From an uncultured Eubacteriales bacterium (GTDB lineage: Bacteria; Bacillota; Clostridia; Christensenellales; Christensenellaceae), in contig CAOKKG010000009.1 in NCBI GenBank assembly GCA_948468985.1, forward strand, positions 1-34,660: DNA of 34,660 nt, read 5' to 3'. Every line of letters begins with the position of its first letter. Within the stretch, counting starts at the first letter, position 1. Shown here piece by piece: positions 22,984 through 34,660 of this stretch. Both the position numbers and the translations under genes were made by a program. The notes beneath the pieces are model-generated. The model did not search any database and was not told the origin of the DNA. It saw nothing but the letters and a program-made list of their open reading frames with translations.

Positions 22984-23016
22984 AAAAAAAGGCGGGAAGG
23001 CCGCCGCCTTCCCGCC
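22984..23016 (-). terminator. Strong intrinsic terminator after spoVT
   Basis: GGCGGGAAGG (22991-23000) pairs with CCTTCCCGCC (23007-23016), extended by flanking A/T pairs, and is followed on the minus strand by TTTTTTT. It is nearly symmetrical and could act in both directions. It separates spoVT from spoVB. Confidence 0.9.
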
Positions 23017-25364: not shown

Positions 25365-25454
25365 TATCTCCCCCCGCTTACGCGGGGAAAAGCTGCAAAC
25401 CAAAATGAACGAACTTGTCGAAGCTAGGATCACCCCCGCTTACGCGGGGAAAAG

Positions 25455-26044
25455 AAACTTTGTAACCAGCTACTATGGGAAGGACGGATTTGCACGGTTT
25501 TTACAAAAAAATGTGGATGCAAATGCGATTTTGTTTGTAGATAAGAAAAAAGCTGCAAAACTTTCGGCCGAGTCAAGCACCCAATGGCTTGAGCAGCTGA
25601 AAGATTACAACTCTAATGTTATTATACGCAAAACGCATGCGAAAATCAACTTTCCACAAGAAAAATCTGTCTCTGCAAAAGGTATCGGCGAAAAGCGATA
25701 CAGCATGATTGGAGAGAAGGGCAAGGCAAACGACCAGACAAATGCATTGATCGAACCAATCGATACAGGTTTACACTGGTTTGTTGGGAATGACGGCAAA
25801 TTGCGCCTCGAAATCAGCGATGCTTCTGCTCGAATAAACACAGAGGCATTTGCAAGGGCGAAGGAAGCGTTCCAAAAGTTGCAGCGGGGAGACTTCAATG
25901 TTTTGACTTCGGACTTGGATTTGACCGTGAAAGATGTCTTTCAACACGACGCATTATTCCAGTTATACCCGGAACTCCCGGATGTGAGGGTGACCGTAAC
26001 CGACCCGGGGGATGACACACTCGGTTTGTATTCGTCGCGCGGAA
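25455..26044 (+). pseudogene. 590-bp phage coding fragment between two CRISPR repeats
   Basis: The interval is one open frame on the plus strand, about 196 codons, with no start codon and both ends exactly at repeat borders. It reads SYYGKDGFARFLQKNV near the start, then a linker, then WFVGNDGKLRLEISDASARI and LTVKDVFQHDALFQLYPELPDV. The last part resembles the domains attached to large polyvalent phage or MuF-type proteins (a DGKxRxEI segment followed by HxxLFxxYPEL). It is therefore a truncated piece of a phage gene and not an array leader or cas gene. The composition is lower in GC than the flanking cas genes. Confidence 0.8.
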
Positions 26045-26743
26045 GGGTCACCCCCGCTTACGCGGGGAAAAGTCGCGGAGCATACGCCTATCCGCAAGCT
26101 GCATGGGATCACCCCCGCTTACGCGGGGAAAAGTTGGCGCAGGGGAATTTTTCTGCAAGGTGCTAAGGATCACCCCCGCTTACGCGGGGAAAAGATTTGC
26201 AGCTGTTTGCGGACGAAGGCGCGACAGGGATCACCCCCGCTTACGCGGGGAAAAGGTAATTTTGTCGCGCCCGGCGGGTTCAATTCAAGGATCACCCCCG
26301 CTTACGCGGGGAAAAGGGCGCAGAAAACTCCCGTCCTGATTCAATGCGAGGATCACCCCCGCTTACGCGGGGAAAAGTGTATAAGCAGCAGTATGAACTT
26401 GAAAATCAGGGGATCACCCCCGCTTACGCGGGGAAAAGTGAATATGCGGGTGATAGAGACCGGTATCCGCGGGATCACCCCCGCTTACGCGGGGAAAAGC
26501 CCCCCTTTTTGCTTTCAGCATACCTCGCCGAAGGATCACCCCCGCTTACGCGGGGAAAAGGAGATTGGGAAATGCTGACGCATGACGAACTTGGGATCAC
26601 CCCCGCTTACGCGGGGAAAAGGCTGTTCACTGCTTTTGCCAGCCATGTCTTTAAGGATCACCCCCGCTTACGCGGGGAAAAGTTGCCCCAGTGCGTCCAT
26701 CGTGCACTTAAAGCAGGATCACCCCCGCTTACGCGGGGAAAAG

Positions 26744-26770
26744 AAAAAGCCGCCCCGAAGGGCGGTTTTT
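26744..26770 (-). terminator. CRISPR spacer that forms an intrinsic terminator
   Basis: Within the spacer at 26744-26776, read on the minus strand, CCGCCC pairs with GGGCGG around a UUCG tetraloop closed by C-G, followed by C and UUUUU and then the CUUUU of the next repeat. A-tract upstream pairs with the U-tract. This is the third spacer from the leader, so it could stop pre-crRNA synthesis before the remaining repeats. Confidence 0.8.
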
Positions 26771-26926
26771 GTCGTGGGATCACCCCCGCTTACGCGGGGA
26801 AAAGAAGCCTCCGACTACTCGAAGCTCGGCTCTTCCAGGATCACCCCCGCTTACGCGGGGAAAAGACCATTTTTTGCCGCCGCCCGAAATGCCGAACAGG
26901 ATCACCCCCGCTTACGCGGGGAAAAG

Positions 26927-26964
26927 ACTAAAAAAACCCCATAAAATCGGCCTTCGGCAATTTG
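26927..26964 (-). promoter_or_regulatory. Very short CRISPR leader
   Basis: Only 38 bp, AT-rich with an A-tract next to the repeat, separate the cas2-dnaQ stop codon from the first repeat. I see no convincing promoter in it. Array transcription may come from inside cas2 or be continuous with the cas operon, and any leader-anchoring sequence must lie here or in the cas2 3' end. Confidence 0.55.
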
Positions 26965-27843
26965 CTAAGCGTCCAATTCCTTTAACTTCTCAAATACGGC
27001 AAAGGTCAAAAAGCAATCCGCCAAGGCCCGGTGCGCACCGGAAACATCCATCCCAAAATGTATAGCAAGCGTCGTCAGCTTATAATCTATGATACTCTCC
27101 AAATGCTGTTTTGCCAACTGTAAAGTATCCAAATACCGATTCTTGAACTCCGGGAGGTGACATTTCCGGCAGGCCCTCTTCAAAAACGCATAGTCAAACC
27201 CGGCATTATAACAGACGATTTGCCCATCTCCCACAAACGAGAGGAACCGCCGCATGCCCTCCTCCAATTCCACGCCTTCTTCCCGCAGCATTTCCTCCCG
27301 GATTCCGGTCAATTCCGAGATTGTCGCGGGCAAATTCCCCCGGATACGCACCAGCGTTTCAAATTGCTCCACCACCTGCCGCCCCACGATGTGCAGCGCC
27401 GCAATCTCCAAAATCTCATGCTGATCCGCGCGCAATCCCGTCGTTTCGATGTCCACTACATAGTAGCCTTCCCGCTGAGCTTTGCGCGCGGCCGCCCGGT
27501 GGATCGCCTGTACCGTTTGCCGCTGCGCTGCGCGGCTTGGCGGGAGGCTGCCACCTTCCGGCCTCGCACCTTCCGCCGGGCGGAGCATCAGCTGAATGCC
27601 GTCATAGTCCACGGGAATCCAGGTCGTGTTATGCACCCGGAAATCCATCCCTTGCTCCGTATTTGCGCGGAACACCATGGTCGCCCGACCGTCACGCAGG
27701 TTTTCGCAGACCCTCTGCCAGAGTTCGTCGCGGACGCGCGCACTAACGCGTCCGACATAGACGCCGGCGTTGATCTCGACGAGCCATTTGCTGAGGTCGC
27801 CGCGCAGCTTGGGCGGGCAATTGCTAAGAGAGAGGACAATCAT
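26965..27843 (-). CDS. cas2: Cas2 fused to a DnaQ-like 3'-5' exonuclease
   Basis: Residues 1-90 are a type I-E Cas2 (MIVLSLSNCPPKLRGDLSKW, NAGVYVGRVSARVRDELW), the dimeric core of the Cas1-Cas2 integrase. After a linker rich in Arg and Ala (about 91-126) comes a DEDDh exonuclease with all catalytic residues: D131 and E133 (VDIETTG), D217 (NAGFD), H271 and D276 (HRALAD). In Streptococcus thermophilus the same fusion trims prespacers, so it should do so here. I start it at the ATG at 27843, which overlaps the cas1 stop as ATGA and matches the other junctions; an earlier ATG at 27852 is possible. It is the last cas gene before the array. Confidence 0.96.
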   Translation of the reverse strand: MIVLSLSNCPPKLRGDLSKWLVEINAGVYVGRVSARVRDELWQRVCENLRDGRATMVFRANTEQGMDFRVHNTTWIPVDYDGIQLMLRPAEGARPEGGSLPPSRAAQRQTVQAIHRAAARKAQREGYYVVDIETTGLRADQHEILEIAALHIVGRQVVEQFETLVRIRGNLPATISELTGIREEMLREEGVELEEGMRRFLSFVGDGQIVCYNAGFDYAFLKRACRKCHLPEFKNRYLDTLQLAKQHLESIIDYKLTTLAIHFGMDVSGAHRALADCFLTFAVFEKLKELDA

Positions 27844-28790
27844 GTTTCCCACTCTCTTCCGTAGGAAACGGCATTCTTCACCGTTCTGCCTTCGCCTTCC
27901 CAGAGCCGTACGACATCCGCTTCGAGCGGTTCCTCTTCCCCCTCCTCGCGCAGCAAAACCTGAATATCCCGCACCATGCGCTCCAGGATGCGCTTCTGTA
28001 CCATCTCCTCCCGCATGCGCCGCCGAATGAGCGCACCAATGTCCTCCGCCGCCTCCGCCGCGACCTCAAAGGCAACTGGAATCGTCGTCTCCGCTTTATA
28101 CAAATCGGCGATGTCATATACGAAGGAGCAGTCGTGCCCCACATGCACAAAGCCCAGCCCCGGAGAACACCCGAGCGCCGCAATCACGGCATGCGCCAGA
28201 CCATACAGGCAGGCATGCCCGGCGGAGAGCGCCTGATTCACCGCGTCTCCAGCAGAGAAGTCCTCTGGGTCATACTGCCGGCCGTTCCAGGGGATGCCCC
28301 ACCGCTGCGATTCCCGCCGGTATATCCCCCGGACGCGCGCACCCTCTCTCCCGCGGAGCTGCTGCATCGTGAGGCGCGAAACATCCTCTTCCGGAAAGCG
28401 CATTTGGTACATCTTCTTGGCGACTTGCAGATGTGCGCGCGCATTGCTCACCAGCTTTGCCTGCCGCATCAACAGCCCGGCGCGATGCGTCAGCGGCCGT
28501 CCACTGGCGTAGTAGCGGACGCCCTGTTCACCGACCCAGACGGCCGTCACTCCGCTGTCTCCAATCAGCTCCATCCCGCGGTGCGTGATGCGCGTCCCTG
28601 GCCCAAGCAGCAGTACACTGATCGAGGCCGCCGGCACATGCACCGTGCCGCGCTCTTCTGTGACGGTGATTGCGCTGTCCAGTCGGCTAATCGTGCACCG
28701 CTCCAGGTACAGGAAGGTCATGCGGTCGCGAATCAGCGGAAGCGCCTGCAAATCCGGCCGCTGCATGCCGGAAATCCCTGCCCTGCTCAT
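27840..28790 (-). CDS. cas1: Type I-E Cas1 integrase
   Basis: Cas1 is the metal-dependent integrase that inserts new spacers at the leader-side repeat. The 316-residue protein is of the type I-E subfamily (SRLDSAITVTEERG, ISVLLLGPGTRITH) and keeps the catalytic residues E149 (GREGARV), H216 (GFVHVG), D226 and D229 (YDIADLYK), each eight higher than in Escherichia coli Cas1. The ATG at 28790 overlaps the cas6e stop as ATGA. The N-terminus carries about eight extra residues relative to Escherichia coli. Confidence 0.97.
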   Translation of the reverse strand: MSRAGISGMQRPDLQALPLIRDRMTFLYLERCTISRLDSAITVTEERGTVHVPAASISVLLLGPGTRITHRGMELIGDSGVTAVWVGEQGVRYYASGRPLTHRAGLLMRQAKLVSNARAHLQVAKKMYQMRFPEEDVSRLTMQQLRGREGARVRGIYRRESQRWGIPWNGRQYDPEDFSAGDAVNQALSAGHACLYGLAHAVIAALGCSPGLGFVHVGHDCSFVYDIADLYKAETTIPVAFEVAAEAAEDIGALIRRRMREEMVQKRILERMVRDIQVLLREEGEEEPLEADVVRLWEGEGRTVKNAVSYGREWET

Positions 28791-29413
28791 ACCCCCCGGC
28801 TGCGCATGACGGTAAGCAACCCCATACCATAGGCTTTCCCCCGGCCGATCCCATTGGTCAGCGCCTCGCGGAACGCCTGCACATCCGTGACAGTCAGTAG
28901 CCCTTCATAGGTCACGCCCAGCAGCCGCACCCGGCTGCCTGCCTTTTTCGTGAAGGTATACCAGCGCATTTGTGTGCTGTACGCCGTATCCTCCGCCACC
29001 GAAAAGCCATGCGCCGCGCCCTGTTCCTGCAGCCAGCGCATCTGATGCTCCGGCGAGGTGTGCGCATGCACGCTCCCGCGCCCCTCGGCGCGGCTCTTGC
29101 TATAGGTCGGGTTTGCCCGCAGGCGGAATTGCCAACGGCTCCCCTGCTCGATCCGTTCCAGCAGCGGCGCATAGTCGCACATTTCCGGTACTTCCCCGGT
29201 ACCAAACTGCCGGACGATCCCGGTGCAGTCCGGCGCATTTTCGCTCAATAGCAGCAGATACCGCTCCCCCTGCAGCGTGTCGACCCGCCAAAGCCTGCGC
29301 CCGGTGCGCAAAGCAAACGCCTGCTCGACCGCACCGTGAAACATCGATGGATTGTATAGCGCCAGCATGGTCGGCCTTTTGGCCGTATCCAGTGCAATTC
29401 TCGATAAAATCAT
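28787..29413 (-). CDS. cas6e: Cas6e, the pre-crRNA endoribonuclease
   Basis: Cas6e (Cse3, CasE) cuts each repeat below its hairpin and stays on the crRNA 3' end. The 208-residue protein has the catalytic histidine at residue 26 (MFHGAVEQAF) in the same position as the studied Thermus enzyme, and the C-terminal glycine-rich loop GIGRGKAYGMGLLTV. The ATG at 29413 lies 4 bp after the cas5e stop, behind GAGGTGA. The repeat hairpin CCCCGC/GCGGGG in the array is its expected substrate. Confidence 0.95.
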   Translation of the reverse strand: MILSRIALDTAKRPTMLALYNPSMFHGAVEQAFALRTGRRLWRVDTLQGERYLLLLSENAPDCTGIVRQFGTGEVPEMCDYAPLLERIEQGSRWQFRLRANPTYSKSRAEGRGSVHAHTSPEHQMRWLQEQGAAHGFSVAEDTAYSTQMRWYTFTKKAGSRVRLLGVTYEGLLTVTDVQAFREALTNGIGRGKAYGMGLLTVMRSRGV

Positions 29414-29417
29414 CCGC

Positions 29418-30086
29418 TCACCTCAATTCCTGCATGGGGTCGTGTTCCTCTTCCCCTGTCCAGGCCAACCACGCCTCCCGCGCCGCACGGTAGGCATATT
29501 GCCGCTTTTCCGGGCTGTAGGACACCGGCACATCGGCGAGATAGGCGCTTCCCATCGAATCCTCCAGCAGCAGGCGCGCCTGTCCCGGCGTTTTATTCCA
29601 TCCCCAGTCCCGCACAGCAAGGTACGGCTCCTGCCGAAGCGCCTGTTCCAGGTCCATCTCCCTCAGTCCGAGGCAGACACGGCCCTCCGGTGGACAGGAC
29701 CGCCTCCCGAGAAACAGCGGAAAGGCCGGATGCGACACGGCTTCCTCGAGCTGCCGCATCCACGCTTCATCCTCTCCATAAAAGCCGACCAAAAACACCG
29801 CATCGCACAGGTAGTAGCGTTCGGTCACAAAGACCGCCTGCTTTCCTCCCTGCTGATGCACCATATGAAAGTCCCGCAGCAGCCTTCCCTCTCGGTCGAC
29901 GCGCACCCCAAAGCGCAGTGCCGTTAGTTTCCCAAGCGGTGCGTCGCGCCGCAGGCCCAGGGCCGCCGCCAACAGACCCGTCGCGCCACTCTTGGTTGGT
30001 TCGCGGTTTGTCTTGCGAATCTCAAAGCGGGAATCCACACCCCACGCCTGCATCGGCCCGGCAAAGCGCAGCAGCAGGGTACTCAT
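29418..30086 (-). CDS. cas5e: Cas5e, Cascade subunit holding the crRNA 5' handle
   Basis: The 222-residue protein starts MSTLLLRFAGPMQAWGVDSRF and continues NREPTKSGATGLLAAALGL, the hallmark Cas5 N-terminus. Cas5e (CasD) caps the 5' handle of the crRNA in Cascade. I start it at the ATG at 30086, which overlaps the cas7e stop as ATGA; a longer frame with an ATG at 30101 is less likely. Length is normal. Confidence 0.95.
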   Translation of the reverse strand: MSTLLLRFAGPMQAWGVDSRFEIRKTNREPTKSGATGLLAAALGLRRDAPLGKLTALRFGVRVDREGRLLRDFHMVHQQGGKQAVFVTERYYLCDAVFLVGFYGEDEAWMRQLEEAVSHPAFPLFLGRRSCPPEGRVCLGLREMDLEQALRQEPYLAVRDWGWNKTPGQARLLLEDSMGSAYLADVPVSYSPEKRQYAYRAAREAWLAWTGEEEHDPMQELR

Positions 30087-31144
30087 GCCTCTGCCCCCCA
30101 CTGCGCGGCCAGCGCCTGGACCGCGTCCAGCACCTGCCGCATGGGCATCGGATCCGCCAGCTCCGCCATGCCGCTGCCGATCGCAAAGGCCGCCTCCGGC
30201 TCGCCCAGATAGTCCCGATACAGCGCCTTTGCATGCCTGACAAGCGCCTTCATGGAGGGCTGCACATAGCCGTCCATGCCCGCTGTGACCGGCTTTTCAA
30301 ACGCCCCTGCGAGGTTGAGCGGCTGATCGCGGCGGATCGCCACATAGACCGCATCGGGCAGCGTGTTGTTGGCATAGGAATTGCGCTTGCCCGTGGGCAT
30401 GCTGCACAAAAATGCCTGCAGGAATACGCGCACCGCCTCCGGCGTGCGGCCGTCCAGATGCGCCGCGAGCTCGCCGATATTGACCGTCGCATAGCGATAC
30501 AGCGTCGAAGAGTTGTATTCCGCCGTGTCCATATGCGCTGCACCCATGCTACCCTCCGGCGCGCAGTCGTCCAATGCGGTGAAAAAGTCGAACTCGTTCT
30601 GCACCGCATGCGTCGAAATCGCATGCGCCACCTGCGCCGCCGCGTCGTAATTCAAGCTCGGATCCTCCGCGGCCATGCGCCCAAACAGCGCGATATCCAC
30701 CGCCGGATTCTCCCGCATGGCCTTTTGGCACTCCTTTTTATCCAGCTTGCCGCCCTCCGCGCCGAGGACGACCTCCGCCAGCGCCGCGAGCTGTCCCGGG
30801 CTGACAAAAAACAGCGCGTCTCTCTTATCTCCCTCCTTCACAGAGACGCCCGCCGCCGCAAGGCCGTCCTTGGCCAGCTTTTCGGCGTCTGCCTCCGGCG
30901 CGCGCGCCCGGATTTCCTCCACGAGGAGGGCGTGCAGCAGCTTTGTGCGCTTGCCCACCTCTTCCGCCGGAAGCTCTTGGCGGAAATAGTCGCGCATTGC
31001 CTTTTTCCACGCCTGCGAAGAGACGCGCGCCCGGGTCACCCCGCCATAGAAAGCCGTCTTGGGGCTGCCGGTGTCGTCGCGGTTGACGCAGCTCGGCGGG
31101 ACCGTCTGCAGCACATGAATGTCCATATAGAGAGAATTACGCAT
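30083..31144 (-). CDS. cas7e: Cas7e, Cascade backbone subunit
   Basis: Cas7e (Cse4, CasC) forms the six-unit backbone that holds the crRNA spacer. The 353-residue protein starts MRNSLYMDIHVLQTVPPSCVNRDDTGSPKTAFYGG and continues RARVSSQAWKKAMRDYF, typical of the family. I start it at the ATG at 31144 behind AAAGGATGG; it overlaps the cse2 end by 8 bp. The longer upstream frame is not family-like. Confidence 0.96.
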   Translation of the reverse strand: MRNSLYMDIHVLQTVPPSCVNRDDTGSPKTAFYGGVTRARVSSQAWKKAMRDYFRQELPAEEVGKRTKLLHALLVEEIRARAPEADAEKLAKDGLAAAGVSVKEGDKRDALFFVSPGQLAALAEVVLGAEGGKLDKKECQKAMRENPAVDIALFGRMAAEDPSLNYDAAAQVAHAISTHAVQNEFDFFTALDDCAPEGSMGAAHMDTAEYNSSTLYRYATVNIGELAAHLDGRTPEAVRVFLQAFLCSMPTGKRNSYANNTLPDAVYVAIRRDQPLNLAGAFEKPVTAGMDGYVQPSMKALVRHAKALYRDYLGEPEAAFAIGSGMAELADPMPMRQVLDAVQALAAQWGAEA

Positions 31145-31745
31145 AAGTTTGTTCCATCCTTTCTTCTTTCGTCTGTCTAATTTGCCGGTAAAAATCCTGT
31201 CCCCATGCGAGGCGCACACGCGCCGCACCGTCCGGAAACTGGAAGTTATATAGATCCGCCGCCAATTGCGCATAGTCGAGCGGAATCTTGCCCCCGCGCA
31301 GCAGCCGCACAAGCCCGCGCAAGTGCTGCGCCGCCTCGGCGATGCCGTTTGCCGTCGCCGCCATCTGCAGCCGCCGGGCGATGCGTTCCTCTTCCTCCTC
31401 GACTGTTACAAGCTGCCTGGCCGCAGCCCCGAGCCGCCTGCCCGGCCGATGCATACAGCCCTCCGGCCCGGTTGCCTCGCTGCCCTGCTGATGCAGCGCA
31501 TACAGCGTGAGCGCCGTATAGACCGCCCATTCCTCCCGCGTCGGCTCGCCGGAGACACTCAAGAATTCCTCCGGCAAGTCGCCGAACAGGATCCCCCAAA
31601 GCTCCGGCAGGTCGCCTGGCTTCTTGCCGACGCCGCGCCGCAGCATAGCCAGCTGTGCGCGCACATAGCTCCTGTCGGAAGCATTCTGATACCTCTCCAA
31701 CCGGCGATCCATGTACGCCTTTAGTTCTCTGCTTCGATTTGCCAT
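31137..31745 (-). CDS. cse2: Cse2 (Cas11e), Cascade small subunit
   Basis: Cse2 (CasB) forms the belly dimer of type I-E Cascade and stabilises the R-loop. The 202-residue helical protein has the family pattern AYMDRRLERYQNASDRSYVRAQLAMLRRGVGKKPGDLPELW, a middle LYALHQQG segment and a terminal DLYNFQFPDGAARVRLAWGQDFYR. I start it at the ATG at 31745, with a strong GGGAGGAC site 6-7 bases upstream; an upstream GTG overlaps that site. It follows the cse1 stop by 13 bp. Confidence 0.94.
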   Translation of the reverse strand: MANRSRELKAYMDRRLERYQNASDRSYVRAQLAMLRRGVGKKPGDLPELWGILFGDLPEEFLSVSGEPTREEWAVYTALTLYALHQQGSEATGPEGCMHRPGRRLGAAARQLVTVEEEEERIARRLQMAATANGIAEAAQHLRGLVRLLRGGKIPLDYAQLAADLYNFQFPDGAARVRLAWGQDFYRQIRQTKEERMEQTYA

Positions 31746-31758
31746 CTCTGTCCTCCCT

Positions 31759-33336
31759 TCATCCAAGCAGCTGCTTTATCTGATACTGAAACTGATTATA
31801 CGCTTCCGGCAGGCTATAGCGCCGGCCGTCCTGTTCCCGCCCGAGGAAGGCGGTGGGGAGCGCCTCGCCAATCAGTTCCTCCCCCAGCGCCAGCGCGATG
31901 CGCCGTTCTGCCTCTCGCCACTCCTCCCGCCAGACGGCCTTTCCTTCATAGTCCGCCTGTGGGTCGATCTTTTCCAGGAAACGCCGGAACGGAATGTCGA
32001 TCCGGTAATAGAACTGCATCTTTGCAAAGTCGGCGAGCGCGCCGTTTGCATGACCGTTTGCGCTATCCAGATTCCTCCCCAGTTGTGCGACGATCCCTGC
32101 GGCCCGATCCGCCAACGCGACCTCCTCCTGTACCCGGCGGTTCCATTCCCGTCCGATTTCTGCCAGCAGCGCCGTGTGGAACTGAATCGAGTCGCTGAAA
32201 ATATCTTTTATAAAGAAGTCTTTGTCGCCGTATTTCACCCCTGCAATGCGCAGACGCACAAGCAGGTTTCGCTGCAGCATCCCGTTGTATTCCAAAAGTT
32301 CCCGCCAGCGCACAACGCCCGGCTTTCCCTTCGGCGCCTCCGCCGATGCGATGGACGCGAATTCCCGCCAAATCTGTTTCTGCGGATCGTGTCGGCGGGG
32401 CTGCCAATAGTCGGCCGCCTTGCCCTTTGCGTCGATATGCGCCCAGACCGTCATCTGCTCGGAAAAGGCGTTCTTCCTGTCAAAGAAATCCCCGCCCAGC
32501 AGGGTGACACCCGTCACCCCGCGCGCATCGCGCTGGAGCAGTAGTCGCCGGGATTGCAGCGTCAAAAGCTGCATTTGGCTTTGCGGCAAGGCAATCTCCC
32601 GGCGCTCCTGTTCCGGCGGTGCGTCCAGTTCCCAAACGGGGCAGTTTTCGTCCCAGAGTTCTTCATTGTCATCCACCATCACAAAGTTCAGCATCAGCGT
32701 CTCAAATAGATTATCGCCTTCCGCCCAGACGAGCCCCAATTTCCCGAGCCAGCCCGCCCCCGGAGAGGGCAACCCTTTCTGCTTTGGCTTCGCTGAAGTG
32801 TCATCATAGCCGTTTAGGTGCAGCAGCCATCGGGCCGCCTCCGCATAGGTGAGGACCTCCTTAGCTTCCCCCGCTCTTCCCGCAAAAAGCCGGTACTTAT
32901 TCCCACTTTCCGCGATTACGCCGTTCAGCTTTGCCGCCTTAAAATAGGTGCCGACCTCCGCCGCCTTCACCTGCCAAAACGGCCGCTCCGGGTGAAACAG
33001 GTAAAACCGCTCCCGATAGGCCTCCAGATAGGCGCGGATGGGCTGTTCCGGGAAGTGCCCGCCCTCCCAAAGCGTCTGCCAACGCCGCAAAGCATCGTCC
33101 GCATCCGCAAGCGGCTCGGCACCGCCCGCCTCCCTCGTGCGGGCAAACACAGCGTACAGCACCGCCAAAAGCATGCGGAGCATTGCCGCATCCTGCGTAG
33201 GCAATTCCCCCGCCAGCGCACGAAAGGTATGCGCCCGCACAAGCGCGTCCACGAGAGAGACCTCCTCCACCGTGCAATCCTGCCGCAGCACCCGGATCCA
33301 CGGTTCCTCCAGCAAACAAAATTCCTTTTCCTTCAT
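31759..33336 (-). CDS. cse1: Cse1 (Cas8e), Cascade large subunit
   Basis: Cse1 (CasA) recognises the PAM, opens target DNA and recruits Cas3. The 525-residue protein starts MKEKEFCLLEEPWIRVLRQD, has RPFWQV, and a long C-terminal helical bundle ending near AYNQFQYQIKQLLG. The length is close to Escherichia coli CasA (502). Its ATG at 33336 overlaps the cas3 stop as ATGA. The PAM preference cannot be read from the sequence. Confidence 0.95.
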   Translation of the reverse strand: MKEKEFCLLEEPWIRVLRQDCTVEEVSLVDALVRAHTFRALAGELPTQDAAMLRMLLAVLYAVFARTREAGGAEPLADADDALRRWQTLWEGGHFPEQPIRAYLEAYRERFYLFHPERPFWQVKAAEVGTYFKAAKLNGVIAESGNKYRLFAGRAGEAKEVLTYAEAARWLLHLNGYDDTSAKPKQKGLPSPGAGWLGKLGLVWAEGDNLFETLMLNFVMVDDNEELWDENCPVWELDAPPEQERREIALPQSQMQLLTLQSRRLLLQRDARGVTGVTLLGGDFFDRKNAFSEQMTVWAHIDAKGKAADYWQPRRHDPQKQIWREFASIASAEAPKGKPGVVRWRELLEYNGMLQRNLLVRLRIAGVKYGDKDFFIKDIFSDSIQFHTALLAEIGREWNRRVQEEVALADRAAGIVAQLGRNLDSANGHANGALADFAKMQFYYRIDIPFRRFLEKIDPQADYEGKAVWREEWREAERRIALALGEELIGEALPTAFLGREQDGRRYSLPEAYNQFQYQIKQLLG

Positions 33337-34660
33337 CGTTCCTCCTTTTGGTATTGCAGACCGTCTTCCCCGTCATAGCGGAGGCGCTGCCCCAAGAGCG
33401 ACGCCTCCCCCGCCGGATCAAGCAGCAAAAACAGTTCCTGCCCCACCCGGGGCGAGCGTGCCCATTCGCGAAGCACCCCCTGTCGGACGGCCTCCAGCTG
33501 CTTGATCGTTTCTTCCATTCGATAAGGCAGACTGAAGAAATAGGGAAGGCGCAGGCTTTGCCGCAGGATGACCTCCGCCTCTTCCCGCGAAGGCGGGGTA
33601 TCCGGCGCGATGCAGAGCGCCTCTCCCGTCAGGGTGTGCAGCATGCCATCCTCTCCGTATTGAAGCAGCAGCACCTCGATCGACGCCGCCCCGTCGCGGA
33701 CGCTGGCCTCCGCCTGCGCCTCACTTCCCGCCGAAAAATCCCGATCCAACAGGCCGTGAATATAGCGCTTTCTGCTCCCCGACTCACGCGGCGCGTTGGG
33801 CAGGCACATGTTCCGCGCCATAGACCCTCGCCGTTCCAGGTCTGCCTCATACGCTGCCCGCAGGGCGTCCAGCCCCAGACGACCGTCATTTCCCGCGGCG
33901 TATACCTCCTGCACTAGGCGCGAGATGTCCCCGGGCAGGTCGATCTTCTCCGGCAATAAGCACCGAGTCTTTCGCAGCAGATATTCACCGTAGATGGCCT
34001 GTGCGCCGCCTTCCAGCTCCTCTCCCTCTGCCCCCAGCACAAGACAGGCCGCCCGTTTAACGCCCGCCGGGCGCTCGCGCCCCGGGTGCCGGTGCAATCG
34101 TCCCAGGCGCTGCAAAAGCAAGTCCATCGGGCACAGATCGGTAACCAGCACATCAAAGTCGATGTCCAAAGACTGCTCCAGAACCTGCGTCCCCACGACC
34201 AGGCAGCCGTTTCGTTCAGCTGGGGTGGAATGCTTGCCGAGCTTTTGCTTCAGCCGCTCCTCCTTGCGGAGGCGGTCCGGCATTGCAAATTGCGCATGGT
34301 TCAAAATCACTTCCGCCCCCGGAAAGGCCCGGCGCAGATCGGCGGCGACCTGCTGCGCCCGCCGCACGGTATTGAGGATCACGCCCGCGCAGCCGCCTGC
34401 CCGCAGACGCTCCCGCAGGAAGGGGACAACCCCCGCATCCTCCCCGCGGAGGATCTCCACCTCGGTGGGTGGGGCGGAAAGCGCTACCGTCTCTGTATGC
34501 ACAGCCGCCCCGTCCGTCCAGGTGAGCAATGGGTAGGCGCGTTCTTCCTCCAGCGCGGCGCCGTCCGCGGGCGCTTCGCACAGGTATGCCTGCACCAGTT
34601 CCCGCCGGCGCTTGCCCGGCAGCGTCGCGGAAAGCAGGATGACTGGCGTCTGGTATGCCC
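33333..34660 (-). CDS. cas3: Cas3 helicase-nuclease, C-terminal part only
   Basis: Cas3 is recruited by Cascade to unwind and shred target DNA. The visible 441 residues, cut at the window edge, begin AYQTPVILLSATLP, which contains helicase motif III (SAT, 34623-34631). They continue through the second RecA domain with GTQVLEQSLDIDFDVLVTDL and motif VI DLLLQRLGRLHRH, and a C-terminal domain. The N-terminal HD nuclease and motifs I-II lie outside the window, so completeness is not known. A GTG at 34595 is not the true start, since the frame is open and family-like beyond it. It is presumably the first gene of the cas operon, whose promoter is also outside. Confidence 0.94.
   Translation of the reverse strand, partial: AYQTPVILLSATLPGKRRRELVQAYLCEAPADGAALEEERAYPLLTWTDGAAVHTETVALSAPPTEVEILRGEDAGVVPFLRERLRAGGCAGVILNTVRRAQQVAADLRRAFPGAEVILNHAQFAMPDRLRKEERLKQKLGKHSTPAERNGCLVVGTQVLEQSLDIDFDVLVTDLCPMDLLLQRLGRLHRHPGRERPAGVKRAACLVLGAEGEELEGGAQAIYGEYLLRKTRCLLPEKIDLPGDISRLVQEVYAAGNDGRLGLDALRAAYEADLERRGSMARNMCLPNAPRESGSRKRYIHGLLDRDFSAGSEAQAEASVRDGAASIEVLLLQYGEDGMLHTLTGEALCIAPDTPPSREEAEVILRQSLRLPYFFSLPYRMEETIKQLEAVRQGVLREWARSPRVGQELFLLLDPAGEASLLGQRLRYDGEDGLQYQKEER

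What the first reader, a model, noticed from the sequence alone, without database searches (positions are those of the whole stretch)
26744..26776. Third spacer from the leader is an intrinsic transcription terminator
In the crRNA sense the spacer has six G-C pairs with a C(UUCG)G tetraloop, an A-tract before and a U-tract after. If active it would cut expression of about a dozen older spacers. It was presumably captured from a phage or plasmid terminator. Cascade proteins or Cas6e binding may counter termination, or a polarity effect may be real.
Basis: partly seen in the sequence, partly recalled or inferred. Interest (0 to 1): 0.65.

Follow-up and report, generated by a model that had tools for sequence, protein, structure and literature searches.

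The report
A CRISPR spacer that is a terminator
One of the youngest memory entries in a bacterium's CRISPR array has the sequence of a transcription stop signal, which may quieten the older entries behind it; such entries turn up by chance now and then, and this one looks like an accident rather than a device.

Summary
Window 26744-26776 is the third spacer from the leader of a type I-E array. In the crRNA sense (minus strand) it reads as an intrinsic terminator: A5, six G-C pairs closing a UUCG loop, one C, then U5, and the next repeat adds CUUUU. It ranks second of all terminator candidates in the window on both strands, after the one behind spoVT. Dinucleotide-preserving shuffles give such a hairpin in 49 of 20,000 cases for this spacer and in 7 of 2,000 for the 14-spacer array. 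The reverse strand is terminator-like too.

The origin was not found: five searches gave no protospacer in viral, phage or plasmid DNA, and the host holds only a similar terminator, not a target. Among 1,858 spacers of related arrays, terminator-like spacers are rare and equally common in both orientations (strong: 3 sense, 2 antisense), so no sense-specific purging is seen. Best reading: a terminator captured by chance, probably causing partial polarity on 11-12 older spacers. Termination in vivo was not testable here. Ordinary, but useful as a natural experiment.

The parts
26744..26776 (-). Spacer 3 from the leader, containing the terminator-like sequence
26750..26765 (-). Stem-loop CCGCCC-UUCG-GGGCGG (six G-C pairs); also a stem-loop CCGCCC-CGAA-GGGCGG on the + strand
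26739..26748 (-). U-rich tract in crRNA sense: U5 of the spacer (26744-26748) followed by CUUUU of the next repeat (26739-26743); a single C at 26749 separates it from the stem
26045..26926 (-). Main CRISPR array, 15 repeats (28 nt) and 14 spacers (33 nt); crRNA-sense repeat CTTTTCCCCGCGTAAGCGGGGGTGATCC; the leader-distal repeat at 26045-26072 differs from it by 1 base
26073..26715 (-). Spacers 14 to 4, the 11 older spacers of the main array that lie downstream of the terminator-like spacer
25366..25454 (-). Two further repeats (outer one degenerate) around one 33-nt spacer, separated from the main array by a 590-bp insert
26927..26988 (-). Leader, 62 nt upstream of the first repeat; begins with AAGTTAAAGG (26979-26988), which overlaps the end of cas2, and ends TTTTTTTAGT
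26965..27852 (-). cas2 fused to a DEDDh (DnaQ-like) exonuclease; stop codon 38 nt before the first repeat
27840..34595 (-). cas1e, cas6e, cas5e, cas7e, cas11e, cas8e and the C-terminal part of cas3 (cut near the contig end), all on the minus strand

Best explanation
Spacer 3 is a piece of foreign DNA that happened to carry a bidirectional intrinsic terminator and was captured like any other spacer. Placed in the array, it forms a GC-rich UUCG hairpin followed by U5 C U4 in the pre-crRNA. RNA polymerase coming from the cas/leader side should pause there and release in a fraction of passages. crRNAs of spacers 4-14 and of the one beyond the insert would then be made at lower level, on top of the usual leader-to-trailer gradient. 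The same hairpin sits in the guide part of crRNA 3 and may make it a poor guide. Shown: the sequence, its place and orientation, its strength relative to chance and to a gene-end terminator in the same window, and the lack of orientation bias in relatives. Inferred: foreign origin, partial termination, weak guide function.
For: Sequence and fold; shuffle controls; d-score 37 in sense and 25 on the other strand, second only to the site behind spoVT (64.5), while the repeat hairpin itself scores -27. Read direction: type I-E operon on the minus strand ending in cas2-DEDDh, leader features shared by 44 of 50 related leaders. No sigma-70-like site on the minus strand between spacer 4 and spacer 14 and no boxA-like match on the minus strand near the leader at up to 2 mismatches. 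Terminator-like spacers occur in related arrays at about the rate and symmetry of chance sampling: strong 3 sense against 2 antisense, middling 9 against 11, of 1,858. Phage DNA gives 38 of 34,480 windows with a strong terminator inside 33 nt and 159 of 34,480 with repeat context. Passages of PMC4499155: an E. coli I-E repeat hairpin with a run of T terminates efficiently in vitro. [quoted passage not shown]
Against: No protospacer found, so foreign origin is unproven. The C between stem and U-tract weakens the signal. Arrays may be protected by antitermination; such complexes are described for Rho-dependent termination (passages of PMC10883916 and PMC7862264). Strong terminator-like spacers in relatives are fewer than the three-phage estimate: 3 (sense) and 2 (antisense) against 8.6-11.1 expected with context. 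That could mean mild selection or acquisition bias against hairpins in either orientation, or an unsuitable phage reference.
Confidence: 0.68

Rival explanations
1. The hairpin is a terminator in sequence only: in the cell, antitermination factors, coupled Cas6e cleavage or the C before the U-tract let polymerase pass, and crRNA levels are unaffected.
For: No orientation bias against terminator-like spacers in 1,858 spacers of relatives, including a five-pair sense terminator in G101 with about 200 spacers behind it in the fetched stretch. Antitermination of CRISPR arrays is reported elsewhere (passages).
Against: The host leader shows no boxA-like match. The d-score is well inside the range of gene-end terminators. 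Counts in relatives are too small to exclude a cost.
Confidence: 0.27
2. The spacer is useful as a polarity element: by muting old spacers it keeps the newest crRNAs abundant, and it has been kept for that reason.
For: Dilution of new crRNAs by old ones, and enrichment by premature termination, are proposed in print (passages of PMC10883916 and PMC5749868). The site is close to the leader.
Against: Terminator-like spacers are not enriched in sense over antisense or over phage sampling. Two newer spacers were added after it, so it is only one step in a moving array.
Confidence: 0.03
3. The palindrome is a chance product of spacer sequence, unrelated to any real terminator.
For: Such hairpins do arise in shuffles (49 of 20,000); no source found.
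Against: All elements (A-tract, perfect G-C stem, UUCG, T-tract) occur together and on both strands. Records annotated as phage terminators match the query (93.5% over 76%). The host has a similar terminator at C5:44294-44331.
Confidence: 0.02

Closest known systems
Intrinsic (Rho-independent) terminator
   Same: GC-rich stem with UUCG loop, A-tract before, U-tract after; strength similar to the terminator behind spoVT in the same contig.
   Different: Lies inside a CRISPR spacer, not at the end of a gene; activity untested.
Type I-E CRISPR array with Cas2-DEDDh fusion (Megasphaera system of PMC10284694, passages read; Streptococcus thermophilus CRISPR4, recalled)
   Same: cas gene content and Cas2-DEDDh fusion, 28-nt repeat and 33-nt spacers. 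Pyrimidine as first spacer base in 14 of 14 spacers here and 1,711 of 1,858 in relatives; the AAY-N32 rule is described for V. cholerae I-E (passages).
   Different: Nothing in the system itself; only the content of spacer 3 is unusual.
Premature termination and antitermination of CRISPR arrays (Stringer et al. 2020, not held, known here only through citing papers)
   Same: Concerns how far polymerase gets along an array.
   Different: That work concerns Rho and boxA; here the stop would be intrinsic and encoded by one spacer.

Membership tests
Intrinsic terminator | Stable GC-rich hairpin | tested here: met
   Six G-C pairs, UUCG loop, -11.1 kcal/mol for the 16-nt hairpin; spacer z-score -3.3
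Intrinsic terminator | U-tract directly after the stem | tested here: met
   C then U5, then CUUUU from the repeat; the single C is a departure from the ideal
Intrinsic terminator | Releases RNA polymerase in vitro or in vivo | not testable with these tools
   needs transcription assay or RNA-seq
Spacer captured from a phage or plasmid terminator | Matching protospacer next to a PAM in a mobile element | tested here: inconclusive
   No exact or near-full match: viral contigs (0 stretches each); 14 stretches share 16 nt only, 16-23 of 33 bases; phage and plasmid BLAST gives only terminator-shaped partial matches
Type I-E CRISPR-Cas | cas8e, cas11e, cas7e, cas5e, cas6e, cas1e, cas2e and cas3 | tested here: met
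   (cas3 only as C-terminal part, cut near the contig end)
boxA-protected CRISPR array | boxA (GYTCTTTAAAA) between promoter and first repeat | tested here: not met
   No minus-strand match with up to 2 mismatches between 24282 and 32207; a diverged boxA cannot be excluded

The most novel reading that the evidence does not exclude
The captured terminator splits the array into an expressed young part (spacers 1-3) and a largely silent archive of 11-12 old spacers. One acquisition event would thus switch off older immunity wholesale, and loss of that one unit would restore it.
Probability: 0.25. Interest if true: 0.45.

Novelty: new member of a known kind. Interest (0 to 1): 0.27.

Why it matters
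If it terminates, this array is a natural test of how type I-E arrays without an evident boxA deal with intrinsic stops, and of whether a single acquired spacer can mute older immunity. If it does not, it shows that pre-crRNA transcription resists a strong intrinsic terminator. Either way the measurement is simple. The comparison with relatives suggests that terminators enter arrays at the rate expected from sampling phage DNA, or somewhat below it.

Tried and rejected
Self-targeting: the host genome has no second copy of the hairpin within one mismatch. The nearest host site, C5:44294-44331, is 87% over 37 bases with length changes; ungapped it matches 24 of 33 bases, so it is not a target.

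Depletion of sense terminators in relatives: looked for and not seen. I also looked at whether sense terminators sit near the trailer end (L073 index 7 of 8, L113 index 20 of 22). I dropped this, because the L073 array is cut by the contig end and the L113 array at its leader side, and n is 2.

Leader promoter: the only promoter-like site on the minus strand near the leader is at 27117-27089, inside cas2, no more than chance; no promoter is claimed.

Origin of the 590-bp insert: a related frame occurs in 5 other genomes of the order (6 of 248 have a match, the own genome included), weak matches in 16 Pseudomonas phage records, none in plasmids and none confirmed in viral contigs. Mechanism left open.

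Papers: no report of an intrinsic terminator inside a spacer surfaced in searches. These cover only the held library, and Stringer et al. 2020 is not held. I do not claim absence from print.

Full report
What is there. The window is a whole contig (C9) of a 1.47-Mb draft genome in 91 contigs. On its minus strand lies a type I-E cas operon: the C-terminal part of Cas3, Cas8e, Cas11e, Cas7e, Cas5e, Cas6e, Cas1e and a Cas2e fused to a DEDDh exonuclease. The cas2 stop codon is 38 nt before the first repeat. The main array, 26045-26926, has 15 repeats and 14 spacers with an exact 61-nt period. In the minus-strand sense the repeat reads CTTTTCCCCGCGTAAGCGGGGGTGATCC. Two more repeats lie at 25366-25454, beyond a 590-bp insert.

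Orientation. Three things agree that transcription runs from the cas2 side. The repeat has the type I-E orientation on the minus strand. The degenerate and one-base-different repeats are at the far end. The leader carries features shared with relatives: of 68 related leaders extracted, own included, 50 end in the pattern [AGT]AG[TC], and 44 of these 50 carry an AARYTNAAKR motif, at 61-63 nt before the first repeat in 39 of the 44. The other 18 of 68 were dropped before that count because they did not end in the pattern. The first spacer base is a pyrimidine in 14 of 14 own spacers and in 1,711 of 1,858 spacers of relatives, as in the AAY-N32 rule described for V. cholerae I-E (PMC7677007, passages).

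The terminator. Spacer 3 (26744-26776) has all parts of an intrinsic terminator in the crRNA sense, and the following repeat lengthens its U-tract. In the predicted fold of repeat-spacer-repeat the two repeat hairpins and the spacer hairpin coexist, so Cas6e sites are not predicted to be disturbed. A d-score (d'Aubenton-Carafa form, recalled) ranks it second in the window on both strands with 37.0; first is 22991-23016, just downstream of spoVT, with 64.5. The same palindrome scores 25.0 on the + strand. The repeat hairpin in place scores -27, so ordinary repeats are not terminators by this measure. Chance controls: 49 of 20,000 shuffles of the spacer and 7 of 2,000 shuffles of the array reach a stem of at least 6 bp with at least 6 G-C pairs and a T-tract; 17 of 21,938 33-mers elsewhere in the window do so when set in repeat context.

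Origin. The 33-mer has no exact match in viral contigs, nor do two relaxed forms. A 16-nt core hits 14 viral stretches, but only 16 to 23 of 33 bases match. BLAST against phages and plasmids returns terminator-shaped partial matches, some annotated as terminators. Foreign origin is therefore inferred from what CRISPR arrays do, not shown. A query with the main array (window 26073-26926) finds no other good match in the host genome than the array itself, a terminator on contig C5 and two 19-bp chance-level matches.

Relatives. From these, arrays of three or more repeats in 100 loci gave 1,858 distinct spacers. With repeat context, strong terminators (at least 6 bp, at least 5 G-C, at least 5 T of 8) occur in 3 sense and 2 antisense spacers, middling ones in 9 and 11; strictly inside the spacer, strong ones in 1 and 1. 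Dinucleotide shuffles of an earlier set of 1,352 gave means of 0.3 (inside) and 1.0 (context, sense) against 1 and 2 observed. Three phage records, chosen as gut phages and not as known sources, give 38 of 34,480 windows (inside) and 159 of 34,480 (context), or 8 and 23 of 3,841 windows behind an AAY motif. Scaled to 1,858 spacers this is 2.0-3.9 and 8.6-11.1. Observed counts are lower in both orientations alike. So there is no sign of purging specific to the sense strand; a mild bias against strong hairpins of either orientation, or an ill-fitting phage reference, remains possible. By the same phage rates one strong terminator in an array of about 15 spacers is uncommon (roughly 2-9%) but not strange.

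Likely working. Polymerase entering from the cas/leader side would meet the hairpin after about 180 nt of array. No promoter-like site on the minus strand lies between spacer 4 and spacer 14, so older spacers rely on read-through. No boxA-like match lies on the minus strand near the leader. I therefore expect partial polarity. In print, passages read: an E. coli repeat hairpin followed by a T-run terminates efficiently in vitro, and array transcription is suggested to need help (PMC4499155); antitermination of arrays against Rho is described (PMC10883916 and PMC7862264 citing Stringer et al.); gradients of crRNA along arrays are common (PMC3649979; PMC4605320). The crRNA of spacer 3 itself may be a weak guide, because stable guide structure is advised against in type I-E and a 5' C lowers targeting in V. 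cholerae (PMC7677007).

Verdict. Interest is modest.

Noticed in passing
25455-26044: A 590-bp insert sits between two repeats of the array where a 33-nt spacer would be expected. It carries an open frame on the + strand with weak similarity to phage MuF-C/LPD/PLxRFG-type proteins. Read in crRNA sense it begins with T, like normal spacers. Long gaps (101-1500 nt) between repeats also occur 20 times among 1,966 repeat-to-repeat gaps in relatives.
   Followed up: partly
26979-26988 (minus strand) and the leaders of related loci: A leader motif AARYTNAAKR, mostly AAACTAAATGAAAT, lies 61-63 nt before the first repeat in 39 of the 44 leaders that carry it (44 of 50 examined), about one repeat-spacer unit away, and overlaps the last codons of cas2-DEDDh. 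It persists in six loci whose longest upstream frame does not end near the repeat, which suggests a DNA-level adaptation signal rather than protein constraint.
   Followed up: partly
26073-26898: The first base of every spacer in crRNA sense is C or T (14 of 14; 1,711 of 1,858 in relatives), so the true repeat may be 29 nt with a last base derived from an AAY-type PAM.
   Followed up: partly
L191 and L192 (G101 C1): One genome of the class holds 394 copies of this repeat type, in an array of several hundred spacers; a middling sense terminator lies in it with about 200 spacers behind it.
   Followed up: no
22991-23016: Strong bidirectional terminator just downstream of a spoVT-like gene, the best terminator in the window; the host is presumably a spore former.
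   Followed up: no
MT835722 and MT838183 in the phage collection: Two records named 'Bacteriophage sp.' match the query region in many places (27 places in one, 8 joined pieces in the other), so they probably carry CRISPR arrays with a similar repeat and may be bacterial contigs.
   Followed up: no
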